The notes under the pieces are model-generated. The model did no database searches, was not told where the DNA came from, and saw only the letters and a program-made list of their open reading frames with translations. A program made the position numbers and the translations under genes. This document shows positions 1-39,275 of a DNA stretch of 39,275 bases, piece after piece. This DNA comes from Zetaproteobacteria bacterium (GTDB taxonomy: Bacteria > Pseudomonadota > Zetaproteobacteria > Mariprofundales > Mariprofundaceae). The DNA is taken from contig QIFG01000010.1 in NCBI GenBank assembly GCA_003228735.1, positions 1 through 39,275 of the forward strand, read 5' to 3'. Each line of letters opens with the position of its first letter. The stretch's first letter is position 1.

Positions 1-2
1 GA

Positions 3-83
3 AAATCACTGGGCTACAGAACACCCCATGAAGTGTTCTTCAATACCACGTCGCGACTCACCGATGTTGCACTTGGCAGTTGA
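3..83 (+). mobile_element. 3' end of an IS30-family transposase gene (cut by window edge)
   Basis: Reading in the frame that starts at base 3 gives a peptide beginning KSLGYRTPHEVF and ending in a TGA stop at 81-83. The block (R)KSLGYRTPxEVF is the usual C-terminal end of IS30-family DDE transposases. Only about 26 codons lie in the window, so whether the element is intact cannot be judged. The terminal inverted repeat should lie between the stop and the GGDEF/EAL gene, but I could not identify it without the other end. Confidence 0.7.
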
Positions 84-130
84 ATCCGCCTTATGTATGG
101 TCAAAAGTATTTATTGAAATGGGACAACCC

Positions 131-1690
131 TTAACCAGACTTACGGGGGCGGCCTTTGCTGAGGTTCCATTGCTGATGCCATTCGGTATACGCATCGGAA
201 TTCAGTGGGCGGCTATAATAATAGCCCTGAACTATATCAGCTCCGAATGCTCGTAGTTTTTCGATCACATCTTCAGTTTCCACACCCTCTACGACAACCT
301 GGAATTCAAGGTCTTTAGCAAGAGCGATTGTTGATCTGACAAGAATCTCGTCTTTTTTATCGGATAGAATATTTGTAACAAAGCTCTGATCTATCTTAAT
401 CTCAGTGGCTGGAAGGCGCTTAAGGTATGCAAGAGAAGAGTAGCCTGTACCAAAATCATCAATAGAGACTTTGTATCCGCTTCTTTTAAGTTGAGATAGC
501 AATTCAATAGCTGTTTCTGGACGATTCATGATGCCACTCTCAGTGACTTCAATTGTTATCAGTGAGTGAGACAGAGATTTCTCTTCCATGCACTGATTTA
601 AAAAAATGATTGCACTGGAGTCATATAAATTTCGAGAAGAAACGTTAATGGATACTGGAATATGCAACCCTTTTTTCTTCCACTCACTGCATTGATTCAC
701 GGCCTCTTTAATAACCCAGCGAGTAATTTCCCTGATAAGCCCTGTCTGTTCAGCAAGCGGAATAAAAACTGAGGGTGGTCTGCCATGCTCTCCGGTCCAG
801 CGTGCTAGAGCTTCTACGCCAGCAACTTCTCCACTATTTAGATATATTTTTGGTTGGTAGTAGAGCTCCAACTCCTGAGTCTTAATAGCTTCCCGCAATT
901 GGTGAAAAAGGACAAGGCGTTGATGGGAAGCAGACTCATCTTGAATGTCGTAAATAGCACAGGGCGTCTTTTCCTGCTTGGCTCTATTTCGCGCCATACT
1001 AGCTCGCCTGATAAGATCGCCAGCAGAATCTGCATGGTCAGGAAAGATCGATACTCCCATCGCAATAACAATATCAATAACAATATCATCAATTACAAAA
1101 GACTCTTCAAGAGCTGTGTTGATTTTTACTATAATCTTATTGACGGTTTTAATATCCTCGCATGGTAACAACATGCCAAATTCATCCCCGCTCAATCTGG
1201 AAACAATGTCCGATTCTCTAAGAGTTGATTGTATGCGTTCCGCCAATCGAGAAAGAAATTCATCACCAATCTTGTAACCAAATGTTTCGTTTATGTCTGA
1301 TAGATGGCTTGGATCAATCACAATCAATGCTGCGCGGAAAGGCTGCCTTCTCGCCCTGCTGATTTCATGCTCTACAAGTTCATGAAATAGCTCCCTTCTG
1401 GGAAGGCCAGTAAGAGAATCATACATTGCAAAATGAATTTTCTGTTCACTGAGCGCTTCTCGTTTCAATGGAAGCAAAAGAAAAAAGTATATTACAGGGG
1501 CAACAGAAATACCGAGCAAAGGAGCGCCCAGAAACGCTAATTCATATTCGCCCAGATGAGGCAACGGGAGCACTGCAAACAGTAGCATGATGACCGCTTC
1601 TGCAATGGTAATAGTCAGCACCACTTTCAGCATAATATGCCATGGTTTTGTGAATGCTTTCTCAGTAACAGAAAGGAGTTTCGCCGTCAT
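131..1690 (-). CDS. membrane-anchored GGDEF-EAL cyclic-di-GMP protein
   Basis: This is a c-di-GMP turnover protein with both a diguanylate cyclase (GGDEF) and a phosphodiesterase (EAL) domain. Two hydrophobic helices near the N-terminus (about residues 18-42 and 49-75) anchor it in the inner membrane with little periplasmic sequence between them. The GGDEF half carries DSLTGLPRR and the signature SGDEF; a serine in first position is tolerated in active cyclases. RESD sits exactly five residues before the signature, as expected for the RxxD inhibitory site. The EAL half keeps EALARW, INVSSRNL, EVTESG, DDFGTGYSSL, KIDQSF, EGVET and the final QGYYYSRPL, so the phosphodiesterase is probably active. 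The start at 1690 is preferred to an ATG four codons upstream because GGAGGG lies just before it. The gene is more AT-rich than the core genes and adjoins an IS30 remnant, which suggests acquisition. Confidence 0.88.
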   Translation of the reverse strand: MTAKLLSVTEKAFTKPWHIMLKVVLTITIAEAVIMLLFAVLPLPHLGEYELAFLGAPLLGISVAPVIYFFLLLPLKREALSEQKIHFAMYDSLTGLPRRELFHELVEHEISRARRQPFRAALIVIDPSHLSDINETFGYKIGDEFLSRLAERIQSTLRESDIVSRLSGDEFGMLLPCEDIKTVNKIIVKINTALEESFVIDDIVIDIVIAMGVSIFPDHADSAGDLIRRASMARNRAKQEKTPCAIYDIQDESASHQRLVLFHQLREAIKTQELELYYQPKIYLNSGEVAGVEALARWTGEHGRPPSVFIPLAEQTGLIREITRWVIKEAVNQCSEWKKKGLHIPVSINVSSRNLYDSSAIIFLNQCMEEKSLSHSLITIEVTESGIMNRPETAIELLSQLKRSGYKVSIDDFGTGYSSLAYLKRLPATEIKIDQSFVTNILSDKKDEILVRSTIALAKDLEFQVVVEGVETEDVIEKLRAFGADIVQGYYYSRPLNSDAYTEWHQQWNLSKGRPRKSG

Positions 1691-1802
1691 TTTACCCTCC
1701 ATTGTGTAACGCGGACGTTTATCCGAAAAAACCTAAAACACGAGTCCATGCGATCAGATCATGTCGAAAATGGTCATTCGGAGCAACAAAGCCTTAGTAC
1801 GA

Positions 1803-2819
1803 TTAACCGATAAACATCGCATCGCCATACGAATAGAAGCGATAACTCTCCTTTTTGGCATGCTCGTAAGCAGCCGTGATGCGCTCACGTCCGGCCAGCG
1901 CGCTTACCAGCATAAGCAGGGTGGATTGTGGAAGATGGAAGTTGGTCAGCAGGCCGCCAACCACCTGAAATTGATACCCCGGATAGATAAAGATCGAGGT
2001 GCGTCCTGCTCCGGCTTCAATCCGGCCTTCTACGACGGACGCTTCCAGCGTGCGCAGGGAAGTCGTCCCGACCGCTACCACACGCCTGCCTTCATCAAGC
2101 GCGGCGTTTACGGCGACCGCCGTATTTTCAAACACCTGATATGCCTCTTCGTGCATTTCGTGATTTTCTATCTCGCCCACCTGCACAGGCTCAAACGTCC
2201 CCGGACCCACATGCAGGGTGACATGGGTGAATTCAGCGCCTGCATCCTGCATGTTCGCCATCAGCTCCTGCGTCAGATGCAGGCCTGCCGTAGGCGCCGC
2301 CACGGCTCCCGTATGTTTGGCATAAACGGTCTGATAACGCTGTTTGTCCTCATCGGTATCAGGCCGGTCGATATATGGCGGTAGCGGCATATGTCCGTAT
2401 TTTTCAATCGCTTCTGCGACATCATCAGCCATAAGCCGGATACGAATTTGCTTGCCATCACGCGCCAGAATTTCGCCGGTAAAGTCCCCGGCAAAGTGGA
2501 CGGCTGTGCCCGGCTTCAATGGCTTGTTTGATTTACCCCAGGCCAGCCAGACATGCGCCTCTCCCGCCGGCTCCAACAGCAGGATTTCCACCTTGCCGCC
2601 GCTGGCCTTCTTCCCCAAAAGCCGGGCAGGAAGCACCCTGGTATTGTTGAGCACCCAGACATCTCCCGGGCGCACCAGATTAGCCAGATCCCGGATCATC
2701 ATATCCGATATGTTCCCATCTTCCGGCAAATGAAGCAGGCGCGAAGCATCACGCTCAGGCATCGGCTGCCGCGCGATCAGACGTTCGGGAAGATGGTAGT
2801 CGAAATCAGAGGTCAGCAT
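1803..2819 (-). CDS. queA: S-adenosylmethionine:tRNA ribosyltransferase-isomerase
   Basis: QueA transfers and isomerises the ribosyl group of SAM onto 7-aminomethyl-7-deazaguanine at position 34 of tRNA, making epoxyqueuosine in the queuosine pathway. The 338-residue protein has the full family length. Recognisable blocks are the N-terminal DFDYHLPERLIA, NNTRVLPARLLG, the TAGLHLT segment, HVGPGTFEPV and the C-terminal GGLLTNFHLPQSTLLMLV. The tgt gene that usually accompanies queA is not in this window. It lies downstream of rpiA on the same strand, with a possible weak terminator hairpin between them, so it may have its own promoter in the 88-bp gap. Confidence 0.97.
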   Translation of the reverse strand: MLTSDFDYHLPERLIARQPMPERDASRLLHLPEDGNISDMMIRDLANLVRPGDVWVLNNTRVLPARLLGKKASGGKVEILLLEPAGEAHVWLAWGKSNKPLKPGTAVHFAGDFTGEILARDGKQIRIRLMADDVAEAIEKYGHMPLPPYIDRPDTDEDKQRYQTVYAKHTGAVAAPTAGLHLTQELMANMQDAGAEFTHVTLHVGPGTFEPVQVGEIENHEMHEEAYQVFENTAVAVNAALDEGRRVVAVGTTSLRTLEASVVEGRIEAGAGRTSIFIYPGYQFQVVGGLLTNFHLPQSTLLMLVSALAGRERITAAYEHAKKESYRFYSYGDAMFIG

Positions 2820-33537: not shown

Positions 33538-34401
33538 ATGAAATTATCAGATATCCTGGCCAGGCCAGGCCCGCACATTTCCTGTGAATTCTTTCCGCCC
33601 AAGACCGACAAGGGCGAGGAAAATCTCTGGAACTGCCTGCAGGAACTGAAAGCCATCGATCCCGCCTATGTCTCGGTCACCTACGGCGCCGGTGGCTCCA
33701 CCCAGGAGCGGACAAAGCGGATCGTTGAGCGCATTAAAAAAGAAACCGGCCTCGAACCGGTCGCGCACCTGACATGTGTCGGCTCCACCAAACAAGAGCT
33801 GGGCGCACTGCTCGATGAATATCACGCAGCCGGCATCGAAAATATCCTGGCCCTCCGAGGCGATGCGCCCGAAGGCATGGACAAGTTCGAGGCGGTCGCA
33901 GGCGGCTTTTCATATGCCACCGACCTGACCGCTTTCGTGCATGGCCGTAACAACTTTTCCATTGCCGTGGCCTCCTACCCGGAAGGACATCCCGAATCTC
34001 CAAATGGTGTCGTAGACGACATCCGCTACCTGAAGATAAAGCAGGATAACGGCGCCGATGCGGTTGTCACACAGTATTTCTTCGACAATGAGCACTTCTA
34101 CCGTTTCCGCGACATGGCGCATAAGGCAGGCGTCACCATCCCGCTGATTCCAGGCATCATGCCAATCGGCAACTTCGATCAGATCAAACGCTTCTCGGGT
34201 ATGTGCGGCGCCAGTATCCCTGTAAGTGTCGAAGCCGTCATGGCGCCGCTGCGCGATGACCTTGATGCCATGAAACAGGCGGGCATTGATCTGGCCAGCG
34301 AGCAGTGCCGCGACCTTCTGGCCAATGGTGCTGCGGGCCTGCACTTCTATACGCTGAACAAATCCGAAGCAACCATCGCTATTCACAACAACCTTAGCTG
34401 A
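33538..34401 (+). CDS. metF: 5,10-methylenetetrahydrofolate reductase
   Basis: MetF reduces 5,10-methylene-THF to 5-methyl-THF for methionine synthesis, using bound FAD. The 287-residue barrel shows SCEFFPPKTDKGEENLW, VSVTYGAGGSTQERT, HLTCVG, NILALRGDAPEG, GADAVVTQYFFDNEHFYRF, IPGIMPI and the C-terminal GLHFYTLNKSEA. It is the last clear core gene on the right. Only 20 bp separate it from the convergent, AT-rich operon, so the junction of core and accessory DNA falls here. Confidence 0.96.
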   Translation: MKLSDILARPGPHISCEFFPPKTDKGEENLWNCLQELKAIDPAYVSVTYGAGGSTQERTKRIVERIKKETGLEPVAHLTCVGSTKQELGALLDEYHAAGIENILALRGDAPEGMDKFEAVAGGFSYATDLTAFVHGRNNFSIAVASYPEGHPESPNGVVDDIRYLKIKQDNGADAVVTQYFFDNEHFYRFRDMAHKAGVTIPLIPGIMPIGNFDQIKRFSGMCGASIPVSVEAVMAPLRDDLDAMKQAGIDLASEQCRDLLANGAAGLHFYTLNKSEATIAIHNNLS

Positions 34402-34421: not shown

Positions 34422-34859
34422 CTAGGATTCATCAAGCTCTAATCGTTCGAATTCATCGTGCACGTCCTGCATCATGCGCTTATACGGCTCGCCAGGCTTG
34501 CCTCCGAGTACCTCAAGGTAAATCGTCTCGAATGCACCATTAGCATAACGCTCTGCAATCCGATATTGCTCTTTCTCATCTTTCAGAATTTCGAGTGAGC
34601 CTTCATCCGCGATCGCTATGGATTTTAGCAGCCAGATATCTTCTTCACTAAAAGCAGAAATAGGAATGTTGGGTTTGGGCCGTTCCAATTCCTTGCTCAA
34701 ACCATGCCTATACCCATAGGTGGCAGCGTATACAAAGATATCTTTGAAATTTGATCCGTAAAAAGGAGAAAGTTTATCTTGGGTTAATTGACGGTATTTT
34801 TCGCCGTCTGCATCGGAATAGCGTAAGTTACGTATCTCAGGAAAGGCGTCGGTGTTCAT
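34422..34859 (-). CDS. small protein resembling dnd system-associated protein 4
   Basis: This is a 145-residue soluble protein without signal or membrane segment. The middle, with NFKDIFVYAATYGYRHG at about residue 37 and SEEDIWLLKSIAIADEGSLEIL around 71-92, then AERYANGAFETI, resembles from memory a small family found beside DNA phosphorothioation (dnd) genes and annotated as dnd system-associated protein 4. Its activity is unknown. The ATG overlaps the stop of the DndD-like gene by four bases, so it is translationally coupled and the last gene of the operon. An alternative is an unrelated small accessory protein of a restriction system; the family call is by eye only. Confidence 0.5.
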   Translation of the reverse strand: MNTDAFPEIRNLRYSDADGEKYRQLTQDKLSPFYGSNFKDIFVYAATYGYRHGLSKELERPKPNIPISAFSEEDIWLLKSIAIADEGSLEILKDEKEQYRIAERYANGAFETIYLEVLGGKPGEPYKRMMQDVHDEFERLELDES

Positions 34860-36829
34860 CGCTGCACTACCTCGGTGTTCGCATCATCTTCAAAGAAATT
34901 AAGCGAATATTCTTGACCAATCCGCTCATTTAGCCGCACCTGCACAGGCTCTGTGAATTCCGTATCAGTCATTAGCAAAGTAACCTGCGTGTCCGCCAGA
35001 TAACCGGGCAACGATTCGGCAATATTTTCTCGGGGCACACCGGATATTCGCCCTGTGGGGGTATCAATGATAACGGGCGCATCAAATCCAGATATAGAAC
35101 TCAGGGCAGCCATAAATGCCAAGGCCAATACTTGCCGTTCTCCAGCCGAAAGCGTGCCTAAAGATGGCATGTCGCGCACATTTAGCACATTAATCTGGAA
35201 ATTATCATCTATCGAAACTCTTTTGTACGTGGCTTTCTTCCATATTAAATCCAGAAAATATTCTTCTGTCTTTTGCTGTATCTTGGATCGGACTTCAGAC
35301 AGCATCTCAGAGCGAATTTCATTGAGAGCTTGCAGGGCTTCAGTACAGAGCCCTAACCGCCTCCCTAAATCTTTTTGCTTTTGATCTTTTTTTACGGCCC
35401 GCTCCAACTCGCCATTCAGCCGAGATAGCTCTTTTCCCAGAAATTTTTCTTCTACCTGTTTTCGGCCAATTTCTTGATTGTTCTTCCTTTGTTCCTCTTG
35501 ATACTGGACATGTTGCTGCTCTAATACCTTGATTTCCTCTAGATTGATTTCGCCATACTTTTCAATTTTCTCGGAGAGTTCTCGCAATTGCCGCTTGGTT
35601 TCCTCAATCGTGCCTTCCAAGGCATGAATTTCCTTGCCTAGGTTCCGTTGTTTTTCAACCAGTTCTGATGTTCCTCGTAAGATGTGATTAACAACATATT
35701 TTCCGGTTTCTGCTTCGCTTAGATAATCCGATTGAGTCGCTTTTTCTAGATGGCTCTGAATCTGTATACTGGCATCCGAGCCTTTCGCTAATTCTTGACC
35801 GCACACACATCTTCCCTGAGCTAGCAAGTCCTCAAAAAATAATGAGCGAATTTTGAGAGGCAACTTACCAAGAGCCACTTGTTCTTGAATGAGCTTCTTC
35901 GTGGTTTTGATCGCCTCGAATGCGTATACTAGTGGTCCAGTTTCACGTAAACATGCAACAGCCTGCTCTCTCAAACCATCAAGCTGGCTTTCATAATCCC
36001 TGATTTGGCCATCAAGCCTCTCCCGGGATTCTTCAAAGCGGCGTACTTCCTCAATCGTGCTGGCACGAAACCGCTGTTGAATTTCATCCAGGTTGTCTTG
36101 TATCCCTCGTTGGTTTTGATCCAAGGTGCTTAAGGCTTCCTTACATCCCCTTAGCTTTTCTTCAACTTCTCCCAACTCACGGTTTATTCGATCTGTCTGA
36201 GGGCTGATACCTTGGGTAGCGCGCCGGACGTTTCCGTGCAGGACTTCCAGATGGCTTATGGTCTGATGAAGCAAACTGATTTGAGACACATCAACCACAC
36301 CTTTCTTAACTCGTTTCGCACTTCCTTCTTTAAAGAACTCATCTAATTGTTCGGCATCAAAGAAAAAGAAATGACTGATATCGCTCGGCAATAGAAACTT
36401 TATCGCCATTATTGGGTTTGAGCTTTGGTGCCAATTACCTTGAGCCAGAAACATTACTTGCGGATCCGTATCCTCCCGAATAGTTACCTCACCACCTGGC
36501 TGACAAAATGCTTTTGCCTGACGCGAAATAACATGTTTGATTTCTGAATCACCTAATGCAATTTCAACCTTAACTGTTGCTTGCTCACCTGGCATGAGCG
36601 TGTGGTAAACCTGTTCATTGATAATAGGCAATTGGCGATTTTTATCTTCTGTCCGCAGGTGGCGTTCTTCTCCATACAAACACCATGTTACAGCGTTCAG
36701 AATATTCGATTTTCCTGCCCCATTACTCCCCTGGATTATGGTGAAGTTCTTTACAGGGCTTGTGCTGAATTTGATCTCCGCATCTCGATATGAACGGTAA
36801 TTTTCCAATTTGACATGGTGAATTCTCAC
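34856..36829 (-). CDS. DndD-like SMC/Rad50-type ATPase
   Basis: This 657-residue protein has split ABC-ATPase halves around a long coiled coil. The N-terminal half starts MRIHHVKLENYRSYRD with Walker A GSNGAGKSN at 34-42. FFFFDAEQLDEFF at about 154-166 corresponds to the FDGE-type motif of DndD. Coiled coil runs roughly 205-300 and 360-500, interrupted by a hook-like CVCGQEL with cysteines 341 and 343. The C-terminal half has the signature LSAGERQVLALAF from 560 and Walker B PVIIDTPTGR near 585. Length and layout match DndD, which acts with DndC in DNA phosphorothioation and is thought to nick or restructure DNA. RecF/Rad50-like ATPases of other defence systems (for example Gabija, Wadjet) are alternatives. 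It overlaps both neighbours by four bases. Confidence 0.72.
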   Translation of the reverse strand: MRIHHVKLENYRSYRDAEIKFSTSPVKNFTIIQGSNGAGKSNILNAVTWCLYGEERHLRTEDKNRQLPIINEQVYHTLMPGEQATVKVEIALGDSEIKHVISRQAKAFCQPGGEVTIREDTDPQVMFLAQGNWHQSSNPIMAIKFLLPSDISHFFFFDAEQLDEFFKEGSAKRVKKGVVDVSQISLLHQTISHLEVLHGNVRRATQGISPQTDRINRELGEVEEKLRGCKEALSTLDQNQRGIQDNLDEIQQRFRASTIEEVRRFEESRERLDGQIRDYESQLDGLREQAVACLRETGPLVYAFEAIKTTKKLIQEQVALGKLPLKIRSLFFEDLLAQGRCVCGQELAKGSDASIQIQSHLEKATQSDYLSEAETGKYVVNHILRGTSELVEKQRNLGKEIHALEGTIEETKRQLRELSEKIEKYGEINLEEIKVLEQQHVQYQEEQRKNNQEIGRKQVEEKFLGKELSRLNGELERAVKKDQKQKDLGRRLGLCTEALQALNEIRSEMLSEVRSKIQQKTEEYFLDLIWKKATYKRVSIDDNFQINVLNVRDMPSLGTLSAGERQVLALAFMAALSSISGFDAPVIIDTPTGRISGVPRENIAESLPGYLADTQVTLLMTDTEFTEPVQVRLNERIGQEYSLNFFEDDANTEVVQR

Positions 36830-37041
36830 TCGGTTTCACCATGGTTGATGCGGGCTTCATCTTGTTGGAGCATGAATTTGTTCAGCAAGTTATCATAAGT
36901 TCGAGTATATTGTGGCCGCTCCTGATCAATGCCTCCATTCTCATGCTGCAATATTTCCCCAATAAATCCTTTGACGTGCATAGGAATATCTTTGGCTTCC
37001 AGTTTATCGAGAATCATCTGGTTGATCTGTCTGTCTCTCAT
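36826..37041 (-). CDS. 71-residue protein of unknown function in the defence-like operon
   Basis: I do not recognise this protein. It begins MRDRQINQMILDKLEAKDIP and is hydrophilic, mostly helical in character and rich in Gln, Asp and Glu, with no cysteine and no membrane segment. It lies 10 bases after the helicase gene and its stop overlaps the ATPase start (ATGA), so it is very probably a real translated gene. Small size and position suggest a subunit or adaptor between the helicase-nuclease and the ATPase; DndE, the small component of known dnd systems, is a positional comparison only, since the sequence does not look like it. Confidence 0.7.
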   Translation of the reverse strand: MRDRQINQMILDKLEAKDIPMHVKGFIGEILQHENGGIDQERPQYTRTYDNLLNKFMLQQDEARINHGETE

Positions 37042-37051
37042 AATGCTGCCC

Positions 37052-39118
37052 CTATATCAGCAAGTACTTCCGCTTAATCGGCCCAATTTGGTTAAGCGCA
37101 TAAACCCGGTTAAGTGCAAGTTCGGCAAATTCATTATATCTCAGAAGCTCGCGCTTCAAGATCTTTCTTTCAAGTCTCATTTCTTCAGCGTCCATTTTCC
37201 CATGTAAAATTGGAACGACAATAATGTCATAGATTACCGCTTTTTTCTTTCCGGGAGATCGGCGAAGTACGCGTCCTCGTCTTTGAATGAATTCTTTTGG
37301 GTTGCCTGAGCTGGCGAGAAGAATCGCGGTCCTTGTGGCAGGAACATCAACACCCTGGTCAAGACATTTCATAGCGACCAGCATTTTGTGCGCCCCATCG
37401 GAAAAGGATTGAAGCAGGTTTGTGCGGGTTTTGAGCGACTCCTGGCCCGTAAATCGACTTTGGATTATTCCTCTCTTGTTTAGTATTTTTTGAGCCTTAT
37501 CGATTTGCTCAGGCGAACAATAAACCAGGGTATGCATCTGGCTTTCAAGTAAATCTAGAACTTGCTCAAAGCAATGGTATTTATTATTGGCATTTACGAT
37601 AATCTGATGGCGTTTGATCATGAATAAGCTGAGGAGATCATCATCTAAGCCCTCTTCAACTTTGGAAGCTCGCTGAATAATTTGTTGAGTCATTCTCTTA
37701 TATTCAGCTAGTTCTTCATCCGTTAATTCAACAAAAAAAGGATAGTATTCGTAAGGAACAAGAAACTTTGGAATTGCCTTTGCCAGAGGAAATTCAAAAA
37801 CAGTGCGTCTGAAGTAATCAAAAAGAACGCGAGTGCCTTCCTCATCAAACCACCGGCTGGGTGTAGCCGAAAGCCCCAAGCGGTACTGATATTCCTGCAA
37901 CAGCCCCTGCCTTCGTTGCGTGCTACCTACGTCGTGGACCTCATCGACGATAAGCAACATAGGCAAAGGGCGTTCCTGGATAAGGCTGGCGAAGCGCGAG
38001 GTGTAAAATGTGTCATGCGTGGTCAGTACGACCAGGTGATCAATATGGCCTGCCGTAAAATCCAGAAGCTTATTGGCACATTTATTAATTCCGGCCGATC
38101 CAAAAACCAGCACCTTATTGAAACCAAACTTTCCTACGTCGTCGGCCCATTGGGTTACTAAATGTTTGTAGGGGCAAGCTATGATTATGGCTAGCCGAGA
38201 TTCTTGCTCAAAAAGACGAATAGAGGCGGCTAGCGCTGTAATGGTTTTTCCGGTTCCGGTTGCCATCTCGAAAATCCCTTGGCAATCATGATCAAACCAA
38301 GACTCAATCGCCTCATTTTGGTAATCGCGTAGTTGAATATTCTCTGGGAGGGTAGGTTCTGTTTGATGTGAATGTTGAGGTTCACGAACTTCTTGCGGAC
38401 GAACCCATTCTGGAACGCAGTAAGGCCGTTCCGCTTTCCGCAAATTTACTATGTGCTCACGCGCAGCTTCCGGTAAATTAAAAACACGCACATTGGGGTC
38501 ACTGTTGCTCCATAGCTTCTCAAAACGTTCCGCATCCTCTTGCACCAATGGTTCAAAAGCTTGTTGCCAGGAACAGAAAATTTTTATTGATTCGTAGTTA
38601 CGGGTTCCCTGGATACTATCATTGTAGGAACCATTAAAGCTGATCTGACAGCCTTCACTATCTGCAAAGACCCCAAACTTATCGTGAAAATCTCCGCGCT
38701 CCAATTTGTTGCGGGGCAGGGCAAGTTTAAATGTGAGCACCTCGTCGGCTACCAGCCAAGCCAGAGCTGAGAGCGTTTGCTTTTCCAGCGCCTCTTCCAA
38801 GTCATCAATGTTTCGCGACAATGCATCATGCAGTAACGGGTCGATGTGAGCATCACTCCCCGTTCGCAATGCTTCCCAATCAGGTTCGCTCAGGATCGGG
38901 CTGGTGACCCATCGAGCCTTTCCCCCGGCAGCTGCAAATTTAACCATCCCTTTTGCAGCAATACGTAACCATCCGGATGAAAAGAAGCCCACGGCCCTGT
39001 CATAGCGCACAGCCTGCTGTAAGCAGGGCAGGAAAAAGTCTTCAATGAGATTTGAACTTGATGTGTTCAGCGTAGCTGGCCAAGCATGGGCTTTAAAGGA
39101 CTTTGGTATTGAATTCAC
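37052..39118 (-). CDS. PLD-like nuclease fused to a DEAD/DEAH (SF2) helicase
   Basis: The 688-residue protein starts with a phospholipase D-like domain (about residues 20-200) with a single HxK motif, HDKFGVF at 145, followed by FNGSYND at 161, the pattern of PLD-family nucleases that form their site as dimers. An SF2 helicase follows: RDYQNEAIESW (Q-like region, 264), Walker A EMATGTGKT (284-292), TTHDTF, DEVH (392-395), LSATPSR (416-422) and motif VI FIQRRGRVLRRSPGKK near 630. PLD-helicase fusions are frequent in restriction and defence loci, including some near dnd genes. The start is probably GTG at 39118 with AGG five bases before it. It is the first complete gene of the AT-rich operon, preceded by another gene end 20 bases upstream. 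Confidence 0.88.
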   Translation of the reverse strand: MNSIPKSFKAHAWPATLNTSSSNLIEDFFLPCLQQAVRYDRAVGFFSSGWLRIAAKGMVKFAAAGGKARWVTSPILSEPDWEALRTGSDAHIDPLLHDALSRNIDDLEEALEKQTLSALAWLVADEVLTFKLALPRNKLERGDFHDKFGVFADSEGCQISFNGSYNDSIQGTRNYESIKIFCSWQQAFEPLVQEDAERFEKLWSNSDPNVRVFNLPEAAREHIVNLRKAERPYCVPEWVRPQEVREPQHSHQTEPTLPENIQLRDYQNEAIESWFDHDCQGIFEMATGTGKTITALAASIRLFEQESRLAIIIACPYKHLVTQWADDVGKFGFNKVLVFGSAGINKCANKLLDFTAGHIDHLVVLTTHDTFYTSRFASLIQERPLPMLLIVDEVHDVGSTQRRQGLLQEYQYRLGLSATPSRWFDEEGTRVLFDYFRRTVFEFPLAKAIPKFLVPYEYYPFFVELTDEELAEYKRMTQQIIQRASKVEEGLDDDLLSLFMIKRHQIIVNANNKYHCFEQVLDLLESQMHTLVYCSPEQIDKAQKILNKRGIIQSRFTGQESLKTRTNLLQSFSDGAHKMLVAMKCLDQGVDVPATRTAILLASSGNPKEFIQRRGRVLRRSPGKKKAVIYDIIVVPILHGKMDAEEMRLERKILKRELLRYNEFAELALNRVYALNQIGPIKRKYLLI

Positions 39119-39138
39119 TCAAGCCTGCCTAAATTATC

Positions 39139-39275
39139 CTATCTATAAGGGTCAATGTATCTCTTGTTGTTCCAGCAGGCTTTTATCTCTTCCCTCTCAG
39201 CTTTTGTCAGAATAGTTATGCCCATAGTCTCTTCCAATTTTATAAGCCGCCCAAATATTTCTTTTCTGGCAGGCA
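39139..39275 (-). CDS. 3' end of an unidentified gene upstream of the helicase (cut by window edge)
   Basis: One minus-strand frame is open from the window edge to a TAG at 39139-39141, giving 44 residues that start PARKEIFGRLIKLEET and end NNKRYIDPYR. The other two minus frames are interrupted. The charged, helical end with codon use like its neighbours looks like real coding sequence. It lies 20 bases before the helicase start, so it is in the same operon. In known systems a DndC-like sulfurtransferase would be a candidate, but this short tail does not allow identification. Confidence 0.6.
   Translation of the reverse strand, partial: PARKEIFGRLIKLEETMGITILTKAEREEIKACWNNKRYIDPYR

What the first reader, a model, noticed from the sequence alone, without database searches (positions are those of the whole stretch)
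34422..39275. AT-rich operon of PLD-helicase, 71-aa protein, DndD-like ATPase and dnd-associated-4-like protein: a possible variant defence system
Four complete genes and the end of a fifth are fused by ATGA overlaps or 10-20 bp gaps, and base composition drops sharply right after metF. The combination lacks recognisable dndB, dndE or dndFGH inside the window. A nuclease-helicase plus an SMC-like ATPase plus small proteins is a typical restriction layout. It could be a phosphorothioate-dependent restriction module or an independent anti-phage system.
Basis: partly seen in the sequence, partly recalled or inferred. Interest (0 to 1): 0.82.

Follow-up and report, generated by a model that had tools for sequence, protein, structure and literature searches.

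The report
PbeABCD (CxC-DndE) anti-phage operon
This is a complete copy of a known four-gene bacterial and archaeal anti-virus system, PbeABCD, which usually works with a sulfur mark on the cell's own DNA; it is a new member of a known kind, and the gene for the mark was not found in this genome.

Summary
Four overlapping or closely spaced minus-strand genes (34422-39118) follow metF, where G+C falls from about 57% to 44%. It is the published PbeABCD cassette, also called the CxC ABC-ATPase/clade-2 DndE system. PbeA is an HKD-type nuclease fused to an SF2 helicase (PADLOC PbeA, E 9e-234). The 71-aa protein is PbeB: it matches a profile I built from 73 other PbeBs (E about 1e-11). PbeC is the DndD-like ABC ATPase (PADLOC PbeC, E 3e-155) with the diagnostic CxC zinc-hook motif. 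PbeD gives a weak hit to TIGR04062 (dnd_assoc_4). Its model (pLDDT 89) has the strand-helix-helix repeat twice, and DndE structures are the top five PDB matches. In 77 of 86 loci from bacteria and archaea pbeC lies just downstream of pbeA, with a small ORF between them. The window is a whole contig, so it cannot be extended. The 95.6%-complete genome shows no DndC, DndB or second DndD. The cassette is therefore solitary as far as can be seen, like 58% of published PbeAC pairs. The gene cut off upstream (44 aa left) is unidentified.

The parts
37052..39118 (-). pbeA: 688 aa, GTG start; N-terminal single HKD (PLD-like) nuclease domain plus SF2 helicase (ResIII + Helicase_C)
   Evidence: PADLOC PbeA 9e-234; TIGR04095 dnd_restrict_1 471.8 bits, cut-off 600; PF04851 and PF00271; invariant H145, K147, D153, G163-S164, N166, M285-ATGTGKT-292 (Walker A) and D392-E393/H395 across six homologues
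36826..37041 (-). pbeB: 71-aa small protein
   Evidence: No library hit (one chance-level Pfam match below cut-off); 51% identical to the small ORF at the same place in Candidatus Chlorohelix; matches an HMM from 73 other between-pbeA-and-pbeC ORFs, window and Chlorohelix left out, E 1.3e-11 for a search of one sequence
34856..36829 (-). pbeC: 657 aa, GTG start; DndD-like coiled-coil ABC ATPase with CxC zinc hook (C341-V-C343)
   Evidence: PADLOC PbeC 2.8e-155, better than DndD 1.8e-65; AAA_23; CxC invariant in six homologues, absent from 24 of 24 neighbouring DndD sequences, some truncated
34422..34859 (-). pbeD: 145 aa, clade-2 DndE-like double ribbon-helix-helix protein (TIGR04062 family)
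   Evidence: TIGR04062 E 3.9e-10, 40.1 bits, cut-off 74.25; AlphaFold2 model pLDDT 89, strand-helix-helix twice; top five PDB fold matches are DndE entries 7x4e and 4lrv
39139..39273 (-). C-terminal 44 codons and stop of a gene cut off by the contig end, 20 nt upstream of pbeA; identity unresolved
   Evidence: Open frame at the contig end; no hit in Pfam, NCBIfam, PADLOC, PDB or plasmids; weak DndC resemblance only
33538..34401 (+). metF, chromosomal flank, convergent with pbeD, 20 nt away
   Evidence: dcd-sized ORF plus metF conserved in relatives; the gene after metF varies among them

Best explanation
The operon is a complete PbeABCD cassette, probably acquired horizontally just downstream of metF, and acts as an anti-phage module. 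Most likely PbeC (ABC ATPase) and PbeD (double-RHH, DndE-like) form a DNA-scanning complex that reads particular sites. When incoming DNA lacks the expected backbone or base mark, PbeA, an ATP-driven SF2 helicase carrying one HKD nuclease domain, is brought in and stops replication of that DNA, by nicking or cutting or by another helicase action. PbeB is probably a regulator or adaptor. Shown here: identity of all four genes, gene order, the motifs and the DndE-like fold of the PbeD model. Taken from the literature: in an archaeal host the homologous cassette with dndCDEA lowered virus plating about 10,000-fold, with impaired protection on deletion of any one pbe gene (PMC6459918). Inferred: the mechanism, the PbeB role and function in this genome. 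The modification partner is unknown here. The confidence is for the identity as PbeABCD; the scanning-plus-effector mechanism taken alone I would put at about 0.6.
For: PADLOC models for PbeA and PbeC; NCBIfam dnd_restrict_1 and dnd_assoc_4; PbeB profile match; PbeD fold; CxC hook; pbeC within 2 kb downstream of pbeA in 77 of 86 loci, all 77 with a small ORF between them and 70 with a PbeD-sized ORF next; dndC within the held flanks in 23 of 86; function of the homologue in PMC6459918. For acquisition: lower G+C, strong PbeA match in only 2 of 78 genomes of the class, best plasmid relative a Chloroflexota plasmid at 62.5%.
Against: NCBIfam scores are below curated cut-offs. No DndC, DndB or second DndD in the genome, so the phosphorothioate partner is missing or lies in unassembled sequence; a solitary cassette could be inactive. 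PMC6459918 saw no cleavage of viral DNA, while PMC10853773 argues that cleavage takes place, so the effector step is disputed.
Confidence: 0.95

Rival explanations
1. The cassette is phosphorothioate-dependent and its dnd modification genes lie in the missing sequence beyond the contig end; the cut-off upstream gene may be dndC-like.
For: dndC is within the held flanks of 23 of 86 relatives. The contig breaks 157 nt upstream of pbeA. The 44-aa fragment aligns to an inner segment of DndC (blastp E 0.96 to L066 DndC; profile score 2.9 bits, reached by 14 of 5000 shuffles).
Against: No DndC anywhere in a 95.6%-complete genome. The fragment ends well before the usual DndC C-terminus, and the resemblance was noticed before it was tested. 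No match to the fragment in 398 other genomes of the phylum.
Confidence: 0.4
2. The cassette is solitary and works with DNA methylation, either by a methylase in the missing flank or one elsewhere in the genome.
For: Three N4/N6-type and two C5-type methylase genes elsewhere in the genome. Methylase genes near pbe loci in haloarchaeal plasmids. 155 of 320 published solitary PbeAC have a nearby methylase gene (PMC6459918).
Against: None of the methylases is linked to the operon; most genomes carry such genes (controls).
Confidence: 0.3
3. The cassette is a decaying or inactive remnant that has lost its modification partner.
For: No partner found. The related Chlorohelix locus is broken by an IS4 element and has a short pbeC.
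Against: All four ORFs are full length with conserved catalytic motifs.
Confidence: 0.2

Closest known systems
PbeABCD of Haloterrigena jeotgali A29 (DndCDEA-PbeABCD; PMC6459918)
   Same: Same four genes in the same order, same domains in PbeA and PbeC, similar sizes of PbeB (66 there, 71 aa here) and PbeD (152 there, 145 aa here)
   Different: Bacterial, not archaeal; no linked or unlinked dndCDEA found; only a stub of the upstream side is assembled
CxC ABC-ATPase/clade-2 DndE systems (PMC10853773)
   Same: CxC hook in PbeC, double-RHH PbeD, HKD plus SF2 helicase PbeA, small protein PbeB; these systems are known to occur without PT genes
   Different: No methylase gene seen in the assembled neighbourhood
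DndD/DndE of DndBCDE
   Same: PbeC matches TIGR03185 over its full length; PbeD has a DndE-like fold
   Different: PbeC scores below the DndD cut-off and has CxC, which neighbouring DndDs lack; no DndC
DndFGH restriction module
   Same: Partner module of phosphorothioate modification
   Different: No F, G or H model appeared among the listed hits of these four proteins; different gene set

Membership tests
PbeABCD / CxC-DndE system | PbeA: HKD nuclease fused to SF2 helicase | tested here: met
   PF13091 itself not hit, but PLD-helicase models cover residues 22-327 and the HxK...D...GSxN residues are invariant in six homologues
PbeABCD / CxC-DndE system | PbeB: small protein between pbeA and pbeC | tested here: met
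PbeABCD / CxC-DndE system | PbeC: coiled-coil ABC ATPase with CxC hook | tested here: met
   61 of 75 relatives show the motif in residues 250-450
PbeABCD / CxC-DndE system | PbeD: DndE-like double RHH protein | tested here: met
   Foldseek E is only 0.041 for the best DndE, and profile-profile comparison with DndE alone was weak (probability 15%)
PbeABCD / CxC-DndE system | Gene order A-B-C-D on one strand | tested here: met
DndCDEA-PbeABCD phosphorothioate defence | dndCDEA modification genes present | tested here: not met
   No DndC, no second DndD; contig end leaves a gap, so absence is not final
DndCDEA-PbeABCD phosphorothioate defence | Phosphorothioate in host DNA and phage resistance | not testable with these tools
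   Needs mass spectrometry and plating
DndBCDE modification system | DndD above curated cut-off, with DndC and DndB | tested here: not met
   178.5 bits against 245.85; no DndC or DndB in the genome

The most novel reading that the evidence does not exclude
A working PbeABCD that does not depend on phosphorothioate: this genome has no detectable dndC, so an intact cassette may read another mark or act without one.
Probability: 0.2. Interest if true: 0.5.

Novelty: new member of a known kind. Interest (0 to 1): 0.2.

Why it matters
It is an ordinary, intact member of a tested anti-virus system. It adds one case to the open question of whether PbeABCD cassettes without dnd genes are active, and with which DNA mark. 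The side result, that PbeB can be recognised by a profile although the libraries used here gave no hit for it, would help to find complete cassettes.

Tried and rejected
Searching genome contigs with PbeC alone found nothing; an alignment of PbeA worked. A PAPS-reductase hit and a nearby aminotransferase on contig C83 looked like dndC/dndA, but I read the gene as cysD from its sequence and its neighbour, and rejected it. An aminotransferase V on C73 sits next to a Rrf2-like regulator and looks like housekeeping iscS. The 44-aa upstream fragment was searched in every library, in plasmids and in 399 phylum genomes (398 besides its own) without an answer; upstream genes in 51 relatives vary and none resembles it by eye. 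Promoter and terminator scan gave no more sites than shuffles. A first survey script used empty pbe queries and was rerun.

Full report
What is there. The minus-strand operon at 34422-39118 has four complete ORFs of 688, 71, 657 and 145 aa, joined by a 10-nt gap and two 4-nt overlaps, with the last 44 codons of another gene 20 nt upstream. G+C falls from 0.57-0.61 to 0.44-0.48 just after metF. The window is the whole contig, so it cannot be extended.

What it is. PADLOC models name PbeA (9e-234) and PbeC (2.8e-155). NCBIfam gives dnd_restrict_1, DndD and dnd_assoc_4, each below its curated cut-off; in other genomes PbeA and PbeD in the same cassette position carry the names of the first and third of these models. 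PbeA has ResIII and Helicase_C domains and invariant HKD-type residues (H145, K147, D153, G163-S164, N166) in an N-terminal region covered by PLD-helicase models; PF13091 itself did not hit. PbeC carries C341-x-C343, invariant in six homologues; 61 of 75 relatives show a CxC in residues 250-450, while 24 neighbouring DndD sequences, some truncated, show none. This is the diagnostic feature given in PMC10853773.

The two small proteins. The 71-aa protein had no library hit, but it is 51% identical to its counterpart in a Chlorohelix plasmid and matches a profile made from 73 other ORFs lying between pbeA and pbeC, with itself and the Chlorohelix protein left out (E 1.3e-11 for one target). The 145-aa protein folds confidently (pLDDT 89) as strand-helix-helix twice, and its top five PDB matches are DndE structures (best: 7x4e, probability 0.99, E 0.041). 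The E-value is modest and the sequence profile comparison with DndE was weak, so the fold match and the published assignment of PbeD as a DndE cognate (PMC10853773) support each other.

Distribution. Of 86 loci with PbeA, 77 have pbeC within 2 kb downstream; all 77 have a small ORF between them and 70 have a PbeD-sized ORF next; 23 have dndC within the held flanks. Loci were picked by similarity to PbeA, so these numbers describe that set. In the host class, 2 of 78 genomes have a strong PbeA match, and the gene following metF differs among relatives, which with the composition shift points to horizontal gain.

Partner. The genome (95.6% complete) has no DndC, no DndB and no second DndD. Methylase genes exist elsewhere, unlinked. 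PMC6459918 reports that only 42.1% of 553 PbeAC pairs have dndCD within 10 kb, so a solitary cassette is common. The cut-off upstream gene gives a faint DndC resemblance (2.9 bits; 14 of 5000 shuffles reach it), too weak to name it.

How it works. In a Natrinema host the H. jeotgali cassette with dndCDEA reduced virus plating about 10,000-fold, impaired by loss of any pbe gene, without visible cleavage of viral DNA (PMC6459918). PMC10853773 argues from the HKD domain that cleavage is involved. The most likely working model, inferred, is site scanning by PbeC-PbeD, PbeB as regulator, and PbeA as ATP-driven effector.

Verdict. Observation confirmed; interpretation right in family and wrong in novelty; a new member of a known kind.

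Noticed in passing
L023 8998-12859: In the Candidatus Chlorohelix plasmid the closest pbeA is split by an IS4-family transposase and pbeC is only 112 aa, followed by an HNH endonuclease gene and a DndB/DndE/DndD/DndC/DndB set.
   Followed up: partly
L026 4897-7977, L028 4924-7977; similar large ORFs in L046, L047, L050, L051: A roughly 940-1100-aa ORF sits directly upstream of pbeA (overlapping or 2 nt away); in L026 and L028 it is annotated as sigma-factor-like HTH. The L026 protein has a partial MzaA match.
   Followed up: no
L054, L057, L062, L064, L067, L069-L071, L077, L081, L087, L089, L092, L096: 14 of 75 PbeC proteins lack a CxC in residues 250-450, many from Firmicutes, Bacteroidetes or Methanobrevibacter MAGs; a hook-less subgroup or a motif elsewhere.
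   Followed up: no
PbeB small ORFs, 75 sequences: PbeB is described as rapidly evolving and mostly disordered, yet a single profile links members across phyla; PADLOC 2.0.0 gave no hit for the two PbeB and three PbeD proteins scanned.
   Followed up: partly
window 1-2000: A second AT-rich stretch (G+C 0.43-0.44) at the left contig end.
   Followed up: no
L114 (G000:C10:35447-36517): A C5-methylase match near a contig end with one in-frame TAA, possibly a broken gene.
   Followed up: no
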